Shown piece after piece: positions 5,462 to 11,189 of a stretch of DNA of 43,014 bases (the stretch's first letter is position 1; each line of letters begins with the position of its first letter). This stretch comes from Methanosarcinales archaeon (GTDB taxonomy: Archaea; Halobacteriota; Methanosarcinia; Methanosarcinales; EX4572-44). The stretch covers positions 1-43,014 of the forward strand of contig RXIJ01000033.1 in the NCBI GenBank assembly GCA_004212095.1, given 5' to 3'. Both the position numbers and the translations under genes were made by a program. Under the pieces are notes generated by a model. That model worked only from the letters and a program-made list of their open reading frames with translations. It was not told the DNA's origin and searched no databases.

Positions 5462-5841
5462 TATGGTGTAAGGTGGGGAAACAGAACTTGTATTCAAAGA
5501 ATTGAAAAGCAACTACCGGATGGATCAGATACCAGGTAAAAACCCAAATATAGCGAAATGCTTGGTTTGGATCGCTATTCTGACGTTAATGTGCCCAGCG
5601 TCGAATACTTCGGCCGGTTTGTAATGCAAATCCCGAAAATGCAAACACGTACACACATCTGCGATTGGCAAGGGTATTTAGTGAACAATCAGACCGATTA
5701 TTAAACGAGGTGCTTGAATGTATGGGGCTAAAACCGGATATGCTTACTTTATATGACATTTGTATTGGTCAAGGATGTAATCCAAATGTTAAGCGAGAAA
5801 GGTTGATGGAACGATTGTGTTACTTAACCGAACACGGATGA
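5462..5841 (+). pseudogene. C-terminal remnant of an IS4-type DDE transposase
   Basis: Conceptual frames give YGVRWG(frameshift)ELVFKELKSNYRMDQIPGKNPNIAKCLVWIAILTL* and then ENANTYTHLRLARVFSEQSDRLLNEVLECMGLKPDMLTLYDICIGQGCNPNVKRERLMERLCYLTEHG*. Confidence 0.75.
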
Positions 5842-5905
5842 AAATCTGTCAGATTATTATGCTGAATAACAAAGGCTAAATATTTCTAAGCCTAACACGT
5901 GCTGG

Positions 5906-6832
5906 ATGATTATCGGTACACGTGGAAGCAAGCTTGCTCTTGCACAAGCACTAATTGTTCAGAAAAAACTGCGTTCCTTCGGCACAGAGGCAACACTGAA
6001 AATTATCAAAACAAGAGGCGACAAGATCACCGATCGTCCGTTACATGCTGTTTCTGGTTTTGGCGCTTTTGTATGTGAAATTGATGAGCACATGTTTGCA
6101 GATAATATTGATATTGCTGTACATTCGATGAAAGATGTGCCAACAGAGCGGCCGGAAGAGTTAACCATAGCAGCAGTGTTAAAGCGAGACTCTCCTTATG
6201 ATGCGCTTCTAACGAGAGACAACGTCACACTTGAGGAGTTACCAGAGAGTACTGTTATTGGGACAGCAAGTCTTCGCCGCCGCTCCCAACTGCTGCGATA
6301 CCGCAAGGATATTATTGTGAAGGATATACGCGGCAATATTGACACTCGCCTTCGGAAACTGCATGATGGAGAATATGACGGTATTATTCTCGCTGAAGCC
6401 GGCCTTAATCGTATGAAATGGGATTTACCATGTAAGAGGCTCTACACAGAGCATTTTTGCCCATCTGCAAACCAGGGCAGCATCGCAGCAGTAACCAAGA
6501 AGAATAGTGAAGCAGAGTCTGTAGTAAAGGTGCTTGACCACCAGCAGACCAGAATCGAAACCGAGGCAGAACGCATAATAATCAGTGTGCTTGGTGGTGG
6601 TTGTGTGGTTCCTATTGCAGCTTTTGCAAAGAGCATGAACAGGTACATGCACGTTACAGCAGAAGTTTTATCCATCGATGGAAAACGATACACAAGAGTG
6701 GAAGAAGATATTACCTTAAAAGACTATGAAGTGCATGCACGAGATCTCGGTGAAAAACTTAAAAAATCAGGTGGTTATGAACTGATCAATGAAGCTAAAA
6801 AATATTTTTCACACGTGAGAGGAGAAACATGA
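5906..6832 (+). CDS. hemC: porphobilinogen deaminase (hydroxymethylbilane synthase)
   Basis: IIGTRGSKLALAQA, AVHSMKDVPTERPEELTIAAVLKRDSPYDALL, GTASLRRRSQL, GGGCVVPIAAFA. Confidence 0.97.
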   Translation: MIIGTRGSKLALAQALIVQKKLRSFGTEATLKIIKTRGDKITDRPLHAVSGFGAFVCEIDEHMFADNIDIAVHSMKDVPTERPEELTIAAVLKRDSPYDALLTRDNVTLEELPESTVIGTASLRRRSQLLRYRKDIIVKDIRGNIDTRLRKLHDGEYDGIILAEAGLNRMKWDLPCKRLYTEHFCPSANQGSIAAVTKKNSEAESVVKVLDHQQTRIETEAERIIISVLGGGCVVPIAAFAKSMNRYMHVTAEVLSIDGKRYTRVEEDITLKDYEVHARDLGEKLKKSGGYELINEAKKYFSHVRGET

Positions 6833-7581
6833 GAGATAAAAAAAATTATGGAGTTGTGTATCTTGTTGGATCAGGTCCGGGGGACCCGGAACTGCTCACA
6901 ATAAAAGCAAAGAGGCTCATCACCGAAGCAGATGTTATACTCTATGATCAGCTACCAGGGAAAGAGATACTTGCTATGATGCCTGATTCTGCTGAGAAAG
7001 TAGATGTCGGAAAAAAAGCAGGGCAGCACACGCTTCCACAGGAGAAGATCAATGAAGTGCTTGTTAAAAAAGCAAAGGAGGGCAGAATGGTTGTGCGTCT
7101 AAAAGGTGGCGACCCATACGTGTTTGGGCGTGGTGGCGAAGAGGCAGCAGAACTGCGTGAAGAGGGCATTCATGTTGAAGTTGTACCAGGCATTACTTCT
7201 GCCATTGCAGCACCAGCATGCGCTGGCATACCAGTAACGCACAGGGAGCACGCCTCGATGTTTACAATAATCACCGGACACGAAGATCCAACAAAGAATG
7301 ACACCTCCCTTGACTGGAATCTCCTTGCACAGTTCAATGGCACACTGGTTATACTCATGGGTGTAAAGATGCTTGAGCGAAACGTCAGCGAATTAATAAA
7401 ATATGGCAGAAACAAGGACACGCCAGTAGCTATTATTGAAAAAGGCACCAGAGCAGACCAGAGAGTTACTACAGGCACTCTTGCTTCCATTGTAGAGATT
7501 GCAAAACAGCAGCAGATAAAAGCACCTGCCGTAATCGTAATTGGAGATGTGGTGAGCCTGTATAAGGAATTGAAGGGGTGA
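6829..7581 (+). CDS. cobA: uroporphyrinogen-III C-methyltransferase
   Basis: VYLVGSGPGDPELLTIKAKRLI, VRLKGGDPYVFGRGGEE, VVPGITSAIAAPACAGIPVTHR. Overlaps hemC by 4 bp. Confidence 0.96.
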   Translation: MRDKKNYGVVYLVGSGPGDPELLTIKAKRLITEADVILYDQLPGKEILAMMPDSAEKVDVGKKAGQHTLPQEKINEVLVKKAKEGRMVVRLKGGDPYVFGRGGEEAAELREEGIHVEVVPGITSAIAAPACAGIPVTHREHASMFTIITGHEDPTKNDTSLDWNLLAQFNGTLVILMGVKMLERNVSELIKYGRNKDTPVAIIEKGTRADQRVTTGTLASIVEIAKQQQIKAPAVIVIGDVVSLYKELKG

Positions 7582-7592
7582 GTCCTACTTTT

Positions 7593-7611
7593 TGCACAAC
7601 TTCGCTGTGTA
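7593..7611. repeat. dispersed hairpin B copy (CTTCG-loop family)
   Basis: tgcacaacttcgctgtgta: 6-bp arms around ACTTCGC, 3' of cobA. Confidence 0.65.
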
Positions 7612-7629
7612 GAAGCCCCAATATTTCCA

Positions 7630-7649
7630 CACCCGATTAAAATCGGGTG
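7630..7649. terminator. perfect 9-bp inverted repeat between convergent genes
   Basis: CACCCGATT-AA-AATCGGGTG. A structured 3' end or terminator role is inferred. Confidence 0.4.
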
Positions 7650-7720
7650 CATCCACCGAGAGAGGTCGCGTATTGGCATAGGTATGGACAGAAGTGGAGT
7701 GAGAATATGTAAGCGATTTC

Positions 7721-8863
7721 TTATCCATGATCCTCATTAATCAGTTCTATTCCTTCTGGCTCATCAAGATACCAAGTTCTCCCTCTTTTTTCCAATATCC
7801 CAGTTACTCGAATCCTTTTAGAATTCCTGTGTGCATCAATAGCTAAGCGATATGAACTATCATCAGGTTTGATTGTTACAGGCATGGCTTCCTCTTCTTC
7901 GAGTGTCACTATTCTAACCACATTTTCTTTTTCCGATGGCTTTTTTCTAAGTTGGAACACATAACCAACCAACTCACGTTTTTCCTTATGAGTGTCCCCC
8001 TTCAATATCTCTGCTGCTTCAGTTAGATATCCTTTTGCAGAAGGCTGCAATGAAATATCTGTATGAATGTCGCTCGGGATTGGCCACATGGGTTCCAAAT
8101 TCACAGAAATATTTAAATCATTGCCTATTCCAATATCAATAATATCCAATAACGTATCGCACATATTTGCATTGAGTCCTGTAGAATAATTATCAACTAT
8201 TGGGGCTGAGCTTTCTTCCAGAATGGAATCTTCGACATTCATAGTACCTCGGATAACGCGTAATATTGCCCCCCTTCCAAACGGTGCTGAGGTAACATTC
8301 CCTTGCAAATCAATTTGCAGGATTTTTGGCCTTTCCAGTTGGCAGTGAATATTTGCTACGAAACTTCCATATTGACTTTGTCCGATTCGGTAAGTTTCAA
8401 CAGATTTCATCGCATCTGGGAACATGCGTGAAACACTCTTCTGTAGATCAAGTTCTGCGCATGTGCTATAAACAAGAAGGTCATACACACTTTTGTATAA
8501 AGATATCCCTTGTTTAATTGGTATGCTTCCGATTTTAGTTTTCAGTGTTGGGATTCGAACTTTAAGCATATCTCCAAAAACCAATATTTGAGATAACACG
8601 TCCTCAAAGTCTCTTTCCTCAAAAGCCGAAATACAATCTACAGCAATCTCTACCACTCTATTGTAATCTATCAATTCCCTTTTTGATGGTATTAGCACCT
8701 CAAGATATTTGTTTTCTTGAATAGGATGAGGCGATCTAAATTTTAGTAATTCTACACGTCCAAATGGTTCTTCCTCCCAACCTCTATCTTTAAGATAATT
8801 TTTTAGATTTTGGATGTTCACTTGTTCTATGGGATATTTCCTTGGGGGCAGTCCATAATTCAT
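7721..8863 (-). CDS. hypothetical protein, 380 aa, coupled to the upstream DUF4365-like gene
   Basis: Long ORF with 4-bp overlap (ATGA) with the upstream gene; C-terminus RIRVTGILEKRGRTWYLDEPEGIELI. No family recognised. Confidence 0.8.
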   Translation of the reverse strand: MNYGLPPRKYPIEQVNIQNLKNYLKDRGWEEEPFGRVELLKFRSPHPIQENKYLEVLIPSKRELIDYNRVVEIAVDCISAFEERDFEDVLSQILVFGDMLKVRIPTLKTKIGSIPIKQGISLYKSVYDLLVYSTCAELDLQKSVSRMFPDAMKSVETYRIGQSQYGSFVANIHCQLERPKILQIDLQGNVTSAPFGRGAILRVIRGTMNVEDSILEESSAPIVDNYSTGLNANMCDTLLDIIDIGIGNDLNISVNLEPMWPIPSDIHTDISLQPSAKGYLTEAAEILKGDTHKEKRELVGYVFQLRKKPSEKENVVRIVTLEEEEAMPVTIKPDDSSYRLAIDAHRNSKRIRVTGILEKRGRTWYLDEPEGIELINEDHG

Positions 8864-9378
8864 GGGAGTTCACCTCCTTTAATACGATCCATAATAGACT
8901 TTAAAGACGAATCGGTGAACATCTGTTCTTTCGGAATCTTGATTCCTTGAGTTACTCTATTTGTTGAAGCGGGCATCCCTCTCAGTGACATCCAATAACC
9001 ACAATGCCTTAATGTTGTACATTCTTCATAAACCGATAACCAATCATCTTCATCGCTCGGCATACAATATAAAATAAGTATAGCAGGATTGGCACGGTCT
9101 TCTAAAATAAGCGTATTATATGTACCAATTTTAAGATCATAATGAATACAGTTGTCATCATTAGAATTTATAAAATTATGGGAAGCTTTTGCTTGGATAT
9201 GTAGGCGGCGTCCAACATCAACTCTTCTTTTTCCGATTTGCTCTACATCACCAATTTCAAGATCAATTCCATAATCATGTCCTGACGGGCGACCACAATT
9301 ATAACCTGCTTTAGCAGCTACTGATGAGATGTATGCAGAACTTAAATCTTCTTGGCGGTGTTCTCGTGTCAAGCTCAT
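8860..9378 (-). CDS. DUF4365-like protein (putative PD-(D/E)XK-fold nuclease domain)
   Basis: SSAYISSVAAKAGYNCGRPSGHDYGIDLEIGD...LHIQAKAS...YDLKIGTYNTLI...ILYCMPSDEDDWLSVYEECTTLRHCGYWMSLRGMPAS: DxGID...QxKA core and C/W-SLRG motif of DUF4365. Confidence 0.8.
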   Translation of the reverse strand: MSLTREHRQEDLSSAYISSVAAKAGYNCGRPSGHDYGIDLEIGDVEQIGKRRVDVGRRLHIQAKASHNFINSNDDNCIHYDLKIGTYNTLILEDRANPAILILYCMPSDEDDWLSVYEECTTLRHCGYWMSLRGMPASTNRVTQGIKIPKEQMFTDSSLKSIMDRIKGGELP

Positions 9379-9473
9379 TTGGCCACCTTCATTTCACTTT
9401 CCACAGTACATGGTATCGTATTTAACATGATCTCCAATCCATATAAAGATGGCTATGTGGTCTACACTCAATC

Positions 9474-9675
9474 CAGTCACTATACCCTGTGCTTATAGGT
9501 ACAGGGATTGTTAGCGTTTTTGGCATACAAAGGTTTCATTTTTATTTTGTCTTGTGTAGAGATATATTTCTCCACAACTTCCAGATCCATGATAGCATCC
9601 CGGAGCCAATATGTGATTGAGTCACCATTCCTTTAGATGTGGAAAGTGTTGTCTCAATATTCTACTGCTTCTACT
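9474..9675. repeat. degraded dispersed repeat, copy 1 (homologous to 42560-42776)
   Basis: cagtcactataccctgtgcttataggtacag...atatatttctccacaacttccagatccatgatagcatcccggagcc matches the second locus in the same orientation. Confidence 0.8.
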
Positions 9676-9862
9676 TTTTATCTTCTTGGCTTATACAGCT
9701 TACAGAATACTTTGGTGGATATTTTATGAAGAGGTGGACGTGATCAACATTCACAGCCATATCTATGATTTGAATGTCAATTTCACTGCACGTTTTTCTG
9801 ATGATACCTTCTGTAACAAGGGTAAATCCCCAACCAATATTTTTCCTTGACTTTCAAAGAAG

Positions 9863-10086
9863 CGTAAATTGACCCACTGATTTTTCTTAAAAACCGTTAG
9901 CCATTGGACACGTTGCGGTCATGCAAGATGTATGACCTAACTTTTGATATTACCATAGTGTTGCCTCGCACAAAAAATAGATGGAAAGCTATGAAAGAAG
10001 AAAGGCAAAGATACTTGAGAAACTTGCTGATCTGCAACGAAGGCTTGAGAGCAACAGAGGCAAGGAGCGGGATGTAAGTTTTTAGG
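9863..10086 (+). pseudogene. IS/transposase-like remnant
   Basis: Short frame MESYERRKAKILEKLADLQRRLESNRGKERDVSF*, plus gcgtaaattgaccca and ccattggaca sequences shared with 32113-32604. Confidence 0.4.
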
Positions 10087-10129
10087 GTATGTTTGAAAGT
10101 CAAGTTTGAAAGTTACCAGTATTTCTGCA

Positions 10130-10214
10130 CTTGATTTCTCCGCAATCAAGAATTATTTTCTGCACAACGAAGTTGTACGGCAGTTAGGTTAATCTCTGTA
10201 CACGAAGGGTACGG
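10130..10214. repeat. composite hairpin element (A-linker-B-spacer-B')
   Basis: CTTGATT/AATCAAG hairpin, AATTATTTT linker, CTGCACAA-CGAAG-TTGT.., spacer gttaggttaatct, then CTGTAC-ACGAAGG-GTACGG. Confidence 0.8.
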
Positions 10215-10734
10215 TTCTGCAGAATCATCAGCGCATCGAGTGACGTCACTTTGTTATCGCCACTTATGGCAGCTCCCACAACAGCGGGAATTGCTCCAAC
10301 CGCCATCTGTAGTGCTATAAATGCATCATTCGCTGTTACTACCCAGTCCAGATTGAGATCGCCTCTTAGGATTGGATCACGAAATGCATACAGGTAGCCA
10401 GGGTCTGAGCCGATGAAGAGGATTCTATCAGAAACTGCTGGCTGTGCTAGTTCCAGTTGCAAGTGTCATAAGTCCAGATTGAGATCGCCGGTCTCTGCAT
10501 TGAAACCGTAAACTGTGCTTTTATCATAGTTTGCTGTGGTGTAAACCATGCCGTTTGCAACAACTGGCGATGAGTCGCACTTTCCGCCTCCCAGAAGATC
10601 GTGTTTGTCACAGGCGCATATCCACTCACATTCCCGGTGCGCTCTGGGTTATGATGGAACTGTGGCCAGTCTGTAGATACTATGGATGTGGTGAGCGCAA
10701 GCAGTAAAATAATCGTTAATATTTTTGTGTTCGT
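10184..10734 (-). pseudogene. degraded secreted PQQ/beta-propeller-repeat protein with C-terminal dockerin-like domain
   Basis: Pieces in three frames: ILTIILLLALTTSIVSTDWPQFHHNPERTGNVSGYAPVTNTIFW; GGGKCDSSPVVANGMVYTTANYDKSTVYGFNAETGD; PAVSDRILFIGSDPGYLYAFRDPILRGDLNLDWVVTANDAFIALQMAVG...SGDNKVTSLDALMILQ. The expected start codon reads ACG. Confidence 0.75.
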
Positions 10735-10871
10735 GTGTGCTGTGCCTCCATTGGTTTAATGTACTATATTATTTGCTGTAACTTAAATATATTTGTTGTA
10801 CCTGACTGAACACTTGTGAGTTAACCTGTGAGAGTTAAGGTTTTAACCTTACGCACCTTTGTTTAGAGATA

Positions 10872-11189
10872 ATGCTTAAACAACGATTTGTTCCGGACAC
10901 AAGTGCGCTTACAGATGTGCGGGCAAGAGAAAAAACAGGTGACCAAACCTTCAATGTTTATATATCCAGTATACTGGATACTATTGCAGAAGCAAGACTC
11001 AGACTTGGCATAAGCTGCTATATCCCCTACCCGTCAGTATACAACGAACCCTTAGAGTTTGCAAAGAATGATGACTGTGGTGAGGGGATTTGCAGATGGT
11101 CAGAACAACTTGGACTCCGCTTTGTTGATGCTAAAACATTTCCTCTGATGCTTGGTAAGTATCTATCTAAAACAAGGGAAATTAAGTAA
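10872..11189 (+). CDS. RNA ligase partner-like (PIN-type) protein with apparent internal in-frame deletion
   Basis: N-terminus MLKQRFVPDTSALTDVRARE...LDTIAEARLRLGISCYIPYPSVYNE joined to the C-terminal motif WSEQLGLRFVDAKTFPLMLGKYL. 105 aa versus my recollection of over 200 aa for full-length members. Confidence 0.7.
   Translation: MLKQRFVPDTSALTDVRAREKTGDQTFNVYISSILDTIAEARLRLGISCYIPYPSVYNEPLEFAKNDDCGEGICRWSEQLGLRFVDAKTFPLMLGKYLSKTREIK

What the first reader, a model, noticed from the sequence alone, without database searches (positions are those of the whole stretch)
7721..9378. Candidate two-gene defence-like module: DUF4365-like nuclease domain plus unrecognised 380-aa partner
The upstream gene has the DxGID...QAKAS and YW-SLRG signatures of DUF4365, a domain I associate with the PD-(D/E)XK nuclease-like fold and often with defence or mobile contexts. 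The downstream 380-aa gene overlaps it by 4 bp (ATGA), implying coupled expression, and has no family I recognise. The pair is isolated among housekeeping genes. Repeat-rich, IS-remnant-rich DNA lies upstream and hairpin elements lie on the far side.
Basis: partly seen in the sequence, partly recalled or inferred. Interest (0 to 1): 0.7.

Follow-up and report, generated by a model that had tools for sequence, protein, structure and literature searches.

The report
Two-gene antiviral candidate: nuclease plus partner
This stretch of an archaeal genome carries a mobile pair of genes, a DNA-cutting-type enzyme and an always-adjacent partner with a nucleic-acid-binding fold, that is already listed (but untested) as a suspected antivirus defence system and travels on prophages, plasmids and defence islands.

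Summary
In detail: two overlapping minus-strand genes (ATGA), A (172 aa, 8860-9378) and B (380 aa, 7721-8863). A is DUF4365 (Pfam 8.8e-25). B has no Pfam family, but it is not unknown: PADLOC-DB 2023 lists the pair as phage-defence candidate PDC-M02 (A 1e-50, B 8.4e-59). I found no published test of it. A's predicted fold best matches the DREN nuclease domain of SPARDA (short Argonaute), and its catalytic residues D39, Q62 and K64 are near-invariant. B ends in an OB fold; the rest matches only phage homologues. A sits directly upstream of B in 36 of 39 distinct loci from archaea, bacteria, phages and plasmids; the three exceptions have mundane causes. Neighbours elsewhere include Gabija, type I restriction, Druantia III, AbiD and a PARIS-like ATPase, and many copies are prophage cargo. 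Here the pair sits after hemC-cobA, where three congeners carry a methylase/ATPase cassette, a MNT-HEPN pair or a transposase. It is more similar to ANME-1 copies (86/79%) than TFB is (63%), implying horizontal transfer. Best reading: a mobile defence module in which B senses invader nucleic acid and licenses nuclease A; inferred, untested. Nostocales plasmids carry a seemingly undescribed short B (N-domain plus OB only).

The parts
8860..9378 (-). Gene A: DUF4365 / PD-(D/E)XK nuclease, 172 aa (PDC-M02A)
   Evidence: Pfam PF14280 8.8e-25; PADLOC PDC-M02A 1e-50; AF2 pLDDT 87; Foldseek best hit SPARDA DREN-APAZ 6e-8, then Hjc resolvases
9187..9264 (-). Predicted active site of A: D39 (9262-9264), Q62 (9193-9195), K64 (9187-9189); E10 at 9349-9351 is also conserved
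   Evidence: D39 35/35, Q62 34/35, K64 35/35, E10 30/34; same kind of residues as D41/Q60/K62 of NbaSPARDA (PMC12205087) and Q62/K64 of TmuRE (PMC10810196)
7721..8863 (-). Gene B: 380-aa partner (PDC-M02B)
   Evidence: No Pfam or NCBIfam family; PADLOC PDC-M02B 8.4e-59 over residues 12-377; AF2 pLDDT 83
8579..8863 (-). B N-terminal domain, about residues 1-95 (YLxxxGW ... P ... DY motif)
   Evidence: W29 38/38, P59 36/38, D66 36/38; retained in the short B of Nostocales plasmids
8000..8578 (-). B central helical domain, about residues 96-288, with GQTxxGS and GLNANMC motifs; missing in short B
   Evidence: G166 and S167 38/38, C235 35/38; absent from L067, L070-L073 and L075
7736..7996 (-). 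B C-terminal OB-fold domain, about residues 290-376
   Evidence: AF2 strand/helix order b-b-b-a-b-b; Foldseek to SSB 3eiv 1.5e-3 and RecG, AspRS, RPA and CST OB folds; G300, L305, Y338, A341, H345, G355 conserved
8860..8863 (-). ATGA start/stop overlap of A and B; SD for B (GGAGGTG) at 8871-8877
   Evidence: junction printed; overlap or near-contact conserved in most relatives
9439..9448 (-). TATA-like archaeal promoter box upstream of A (inferred)
   Evidence: Sequence TTTATATGG printed; not tested
7596..7614 (.). Left arm of a 19-nt inverted repeat (partner 10158-10176) that encloses the module; the arms are copies of dispersed hairpin repeats
   Evidence: 89% complementary; the repeats are multi-copy in the genome
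9379..10871 (.). Mosaic of dispersed repeat and remnant DNA flanking the module
   Evidence: 53 matches genome-wide; dockerin-like fragment at 10184-10462

Best explanation
The pair is a member of the candidate antiviral system PDC-M02: a horizontally transferred two-gene module expressed as one transcript. Gene A is a PD-(D/E)XK nuclease effector of the DUF4365/DREN type. Gene B is its obligate partner, with an N-terminal domain, a central domain and a C-terminal OB fold. Most likely B holds A inactive in a complex and senses invader nucleic acid (single-stranded or replication-intermediate DNA is my best guess, from the OB fold). On sensing, it licenses or oligomerises A, which then degrades DNA and aborts the infection, much as target recognition activates the same nuclease domain in SPARDA but with no Argonaute and no guide. 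Shown here: co-occurrence, correlated divergence, an intact active-site pattern, the folds by prediction, mobility, and company with defence genes. Inferred: single transcript, complex formation, the trigger, the substrate and the antiviral outcome.
For: Both proteins match PDC-M02A and PDC-M02B over full length. A is adjacent to B in 36 of 39 distinct loci. The exceptions: L066 runs into the record origin and the identical plasmid CP101192 has A; in L060 A is displaced by a transposase-like ORF; L041 is an N-truncated remnant beside type I R-M. A and B pairwise identities correlate (r = 0.82; 0 of 2000 Mantel permutations reach it). A's best structural neighbour is the SPARDA DREN domain, and its D/QxK triad matches SPARDA's experimentally supported residues. 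B has an OB fold. Defence company: an ANME-1 copy 82/68% identical lies beside type I R-M, Gabija and PDC-S02 (L037); Rhizobium plasmid beside Druantia III (L056); Entomospira plasmid beside DUF262 proteins and AbiD (L058); Firmicutes beside an AriA-like ATPase (L005). Prophage cargo positions next to terminase, head, tail or integrase genes. The site after cobA holds different defence-like cassettes in congeners. Horizontal transfer: A 86% and B 79% identical to ANME-1 copies, while TFB is 63%.
Against: There is no experiment on this pair or on any PDC-M02 that I could find, and two other PDCs tested in a native host showed no activity (PMC12409345). Many copies have no defence gene within 8 kb. 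An OB fold does not prove DNA binding, since some bind proteins or tRNA. The N-terminal and central domains of B have no identified fold relatives outside phage homologues. Whether B activates or only restrains A is unknown.
Confidence: 0.6

Rival explanations
1. Toxin-antitoxin-like addiction module: A is a nuclease toxin, B a large antitoxin; the pair persists by addiction on plasmids and prophages, with phage protection at most a side effect.
For: Strict pairing, plasmid and phage carriage, neighbours that are TA pairs. In two loci B survives without A (L060, L041), and no clear A-only locus was seen among the A hits I inspected.
Against: B is large, multi-domain and conserved at specific residues in all three domains, more than a simple inhibitor needs. 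Defence-island company is frequent.
Confidence: 0.17
2. Restriction-like or anti-plasmid system: the pair recognises a DNA feature of foreign DNA directly (B as specificity part) and A cuts it without killing the host.
For: PD-(D/E)XK fold shared with restriction enzymes such as EcoRV; neighbours are often R-M systems.
Against: No partner methylase is conserved next to the pair, so self-protection would need another mechanism.
Confidence: 0.12
3. DNA-recombination or repair accessory of phages and plasmids: A is an Hjc-like junction resolvase and B an SSB-like loader.
For: A also matches Hjc resolvases (2e-4) and B's OB fold matches SSB and RecG.
Against: A has QxK like DREN, not the ExK of Hjc (Hjc motif from my own knowledge). 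A prophage carrying the pair already encodes RusA (L018), and most phage copies sit in cargo positions among late genes, not in replication modules. The distribution is sporadic (8 of 394 genomes) and among defence genes.
Confidence: 0.08
4. Not functional in this genome: a decaying passenger left by an element.
For: Flanked by repeat remnants; a sister copy in ANME-1 has a stop in B (L037).
Against: Both window ORFs are intact, with conserved catalytic residues, overlap, SD and TATA-like box.
Confidence: 0.03

Closest known systems
PADLOC candidate system PDC-M02 (PDC-M02A + PDC-M02B)
   Same: Same two proteins over full length, same order, adjacent
   Different: Nothing that sets the window copy apart; this is a member. 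The short B of Nostocales matches the same models in two separate pieces
SPARDA (short Argonaute with DREN/DUF4365-APAZ)
   Same: Same nuclease fold and the same D/QxK residue pattern
   Different: No Argonaute, no APAZ fusion; the nuclease is a separate protein paired with an OB-fold protein
Hjc Holliday-junction resolvases
   Same: PD-(D/E)XK fold, similar small size
   Different: Lower structural score, QxK motif, obligate partner B, mobile distribution
Druantia type III DruH
   Same: One short-B protein has a weak match to one DruH model (6.7e-6), and one M02 copy sits beside Druantia III
   Different: The B profiles do not match the DruH next door; homology unconfirmed

Membership tests
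PDC-M02 (PADLOC) | Protein A matches PDC-M02A models over full length | tested here: met
   1e-50, residues 3-167 on model 2-164/170
PDC-M02 (PADLOC) | Protein B matches PDC-M02B models over full length | tested here: met
   8.4e-59, residues 12-377 on model 11-376/380
PDC-M02 (PADLOC) | The two genes are adjacent, same strand | tested here: met
   4-bp overlap; 36/39 relatives adjacent
PDC-M02 (PADLOC) | Demonstrated antiphage activity | not testable with these tools
   No published assay found; candidate status only (PMC12988326)
DUF4365 / PD-(D/E)XK nuclease | Family profile above curated cut-off | tested here: met
   87.8 bits against 24.3
DUF4365 / PD-(D/E)XK nuclease | Fold and active-site residues D, Q, K in place | tested here: met
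   AF2 plus Foldseek; conservation
DUF4365 / PD-(D/E)XK nuclease | Nuclease activity | not testable with these tools
   Needs purified protein
SPARDA | Short Argonaute (MID-PIWI) gene in the operon | tested here: not met
   Two-gene module; no third gene is conserved with the pair in relatives
SPARDA | Nuclease fused to APAZ domain | tested here: not met
   A is 172 aa, DUF4365 only; B's fold search finds the OB fold, not APAZ
Toxin-antitoxin module | A toxic alone and neutralised by B | not testable with these tools
   Needs an expression assay
Hjc resolvase | ExK catalytic motif of Hjc | tested here: not met
   QxK in 34/35; the Hjc motif is from my own knowledge
Druantia III | DruH + DruE helicase | tested here: not met
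   No helicase in the module; B profile has no match to the DruH of L056

The most novel reading that the evidence does not exclude
PDC-M02 works like a guide-free SPARDA: the DREN nuclease is switched by a separate OB-fold sensor of invader DNA instead of an Argonaute. It exists in two architectures, a full B with a central domain (this window, prophages) and a minimal B of only N-domain plus OB in Nostocales plasmids, which would make a very small self-contained DREN defence unit.
Probability: 0.35. Interest if true: 0.7.

Novelty: new member of a known kind. Interest (0 to 1): 0.42.

Why it matters
DUF4365 nucleases are known mainly as effectors of short Argonautes. A widespread module in which the same effector is paired with a non-Argonaute, OB-fold partner would show that this nuclease is a plug-in effector with more than one sensor. 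The pair's presence in prophages of culturable hosts (Clostridium, Leptospira, Mycobacterium) and on Nostoc plasmids makes it testable in ordinary laboratory systems, although this archaeal copy cannot easily be tested in its host. Its spread between uncultured archaeal orders also shows defence exchange among them.

Tried and rejected
Partner as a housekeeping family: rejected, 1 of 60 relatives and 8 of 394 genomes carry it. Partner as APAZ or Argonaute-like: the fold search finds only an OB fold, and there is no solved relative by sequence. Weak Pfam hits of B (DUF1093, Baculo_F and others): one or two members each, rejected as chance. B homologous to DruH: one weak model hit, not reproduced on a real DruH; the DruH model itself finds only one fragment-like match in 295 archaeal genomes, so no archaeal DruH was at hand to test further. 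Left open, not claimed. Clean empty site by flank comparison: congeners keep hemC-cobA (92-96%) but differ on both sides, so an exact insertion boundary could not be drawn (a first attempt failed on a file name). E. coli homologue of one phage copy: none by DNA.

Full report
OBSERVATION. The window is contig C35 of a 1.46-Mb, 119-contig archaeal genome. At 8860-9378 (-) lies gene A (172 aa) and at 7721-8863 (-) gene B (380 aa); they overlap by ATGA. A good Shine-Dalgarno precedes B's start inside the end of A, and a TATA-like box precedes A, so expression from one transcript is plausible (inferred). G+C of the pair is 0.38 against a window mean of 0.403 with s.d. 0.035, so composition alone is not evidence of transfer.

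IDENTITY. A is DUF4365 (Pfam 8.8e-25). B has no Pfam or NCBIfam family. PADLOC-DB 2.0.0 (2023) has both: A matches PDC-M02A (best 1e-50) and B matches PDC-M02B (best 8.4e-59), each over nearly full length. PDCs are putative defence candidates from a guilt-by-embedding screen, most not validated (PMC12988326). No paper in the library mentions PDC-M02, and none of the ten papers that mention DUF4365 is, by title and abstract, about a DUF4365 protein paired with such a partner. PHROGs also has both as unknown-function phage families (27905 and 27927).

STRUCTURE. AlphaFold2 gives A at pLDDT 87 and B at 83. Foldseek against the PDB puts A first with the DREN-APAZ chains of SPARDA complexes (E 6e-8), then Hjc resolvases, I-Ssp6803I and EcoRV. 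In SPARDA the catalytic residues are D41, Q60 and K62 (PMC12205087), and Q62A/K64A was made as the inactive mutant of TmuRE (PMC10810196). In A the equivalents D39, Q62 and K64 are conserved in 35/35, 34/35 and 35/35 relatives. B's C-terminal part (about 290-376) is an OB fold, with matches to SSB, RecG, AspRS, RPA and CST at E about 1e-3 to 1e-2. The remainder has no listed match in the PDB. In the viral library there are the Leptospira phage LE1 homologue (1.4e-27) and a 270-aa myovirus protein (7.5e-8); the remaining hits are weak. Conserved spots of B include W29, P59 and D66 in the N-domain, G166-S167 and the GLNANMC stretch in the central domain, and G300, L305, H345 and G355 in the OB domain.

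A SHORT FORM OF B. Plasmids of Nostoc, Tolypothrix and Calothrix (L067, L070-L073, L075) carry A followed by a ~180-aa protein that matches B residues ~4-89 and ~288-369 back to back, without the central domain. L074 (Azospirillum) keeps only the N-domain match. tblastn finds the short form in about 17 plasmid records, all Nostocales. PADLOC's full-length models match it in two pieces, so the library does not separate it. This suggests that the core of B is N-domain plus OB, and that the central domain is an optional, perhaps specificity-giving, part (inference).

CO-OCCURRENCE. Over genome contigs, viral contigs, plasmids, phages and archaeal genomes, 39 distinct B loci (90% clustering, window included) were scanned for A; 36 have it directly upstream. 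The rest: L066 is cut by the record origin and its identical plasmid has A; L060's A is displaced by a transposase-like ORF; L041 is an N-truncated remnant with no A upstream, next to a type I methyltransferase. Pairwise identities of A and B correlate (r = 0.82, Mantel 0/2000): the pair is inherited as a unit.

CONTEXT ELSEWHERE. Prophage or viral copies sit just before terminase genes (L013, L016, L018), between primase and major head gene (L021), next to tail-region genes (L009-L012, L019, L022), or after an integrase (L023). The closest viral copy (L008, A 58% and B 45%) is next to a tail-completion gene. Chromosomal and plasmid copies lie beside Gabija + type I R-M + PDC-S02 (L037, Methanophagales), a type I methyltransferase (L041), Druantia III (L056), DUF262 proteins + AbiD + TA pairs + integrase (L058), an AriA-like ATPase (L005), or a Fic protein similar to SoFic (L057). 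Others show no defence neighbour (L055, L059). I did not run a matched random control for the neighbourhood, so enrichment is shown by examples, not by a statistic.

CONTEXT HERE. hemC-cobA (5838-7602) is 92-96% identical in three congeners, whose contigs continue past it. None has the pair. Instead G001 has a D12 adenine methylase and a HATPase_c_3 protein with weak REase_II similarity, G002 has a MNT-HEPN pair, and G003 has a transposase-like gene. The site downstream of cobA is thus a variable cassette site in this genus (four genomes; inference). On the other side 1.5 kb of dispersed repeats (53 matches in the genome) separates the pair from a truncated PIN gene. A 19-nt inverted repeat (7596-7614 / 10158-10176) encloses the module, but its arms are copies of dispersed hairpins, so I do not call it a transposon end.

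TRANSFER. The closest copies are in Methanophagales (ANME-1): A 86%, B 79%. TFB, a core gene, is only 63% identical to those genomes, but 80-81% to two genomes (G219, G268) whose B is only ~24% identical. The gene similarity thus contradicts the species signal: the pair moved between archaeal orders.

MECHANISM. Best guess: A and B form a complex; B's OB fold, with its other domains, senses foreign or replicating nucleic acid; A is then allowed to cut, probably non-specifically as in SPARDA, stopping the infection. Complex formation, trigger, substrate and outcome are inferred. Rivals are a TA-like module, restriction without methylase, a recombination accessory, and decay.

CONCLUSION. The 'unrecognised' partner is catalogued, and the pair is a member of PDC-M02. 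Interest is moderate: the system is untested, widespread, and its effector links it to SPARDA without Argonaute.

Noticed in passing
L067:7330-8399, L070-L073 and L075 (Nostocales plasmids); L074 (Azospirillum, N-domain only): Short form of B (~180 aa: N-domain fused directly to OB, central domain absent) paired with A, in L070-L072 and L075 near a tyrosine recombinase/integrase; seemingly not separated in PADLOC.
   Followed up: partly
window 7582-7720; L051, L052, L053 downstream of cobA: Variable site after hemC-cobA in this genus: PDC-M02, D12 methylase + HATPase_c_3 cassette, MNT-HEPN pair, or transposase in four congeners.
   Followed up: partly
L037:813-9996: Methanophagales defence island: Gabija, type I R-M, PDC-S02 and a PDC-M02 copy whose B has an internal TAA.
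   Followed up: partly
L056:2-9086: Rhizobium plasmid with Druantia III (DruE-DruH) next to PDC-M02; one short-B protein elsewhere weakly matches a DruH model (6.7e-6).
   Followed up: partly
window 9379-10871: Dense mosaic of dispersed repeats, 53 matches across the genome; includes a dockerin-like fragment (10184-10462, 5.9e-4, below cut-off).
   Followed up: partly
window 10872-11189: PIN_5 ribonuclease gene whose best stretch covers only the first third of its family profile (1-65 of 205): likely truncated.
   Followed up: no
L020:6713-9113: Phage copy in which A is split into two pieces ~750 bp apart, with two ORFs in between that look like IS1-type transposase genes (not scanned), while B is intact.
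   Followed up: no
L004:8001-9227 and L008:462-1694: B proteins with C-terminal extensions (408 and ~410 aa) beyond the OB domain, of unknown meaning.
   Followed up: no
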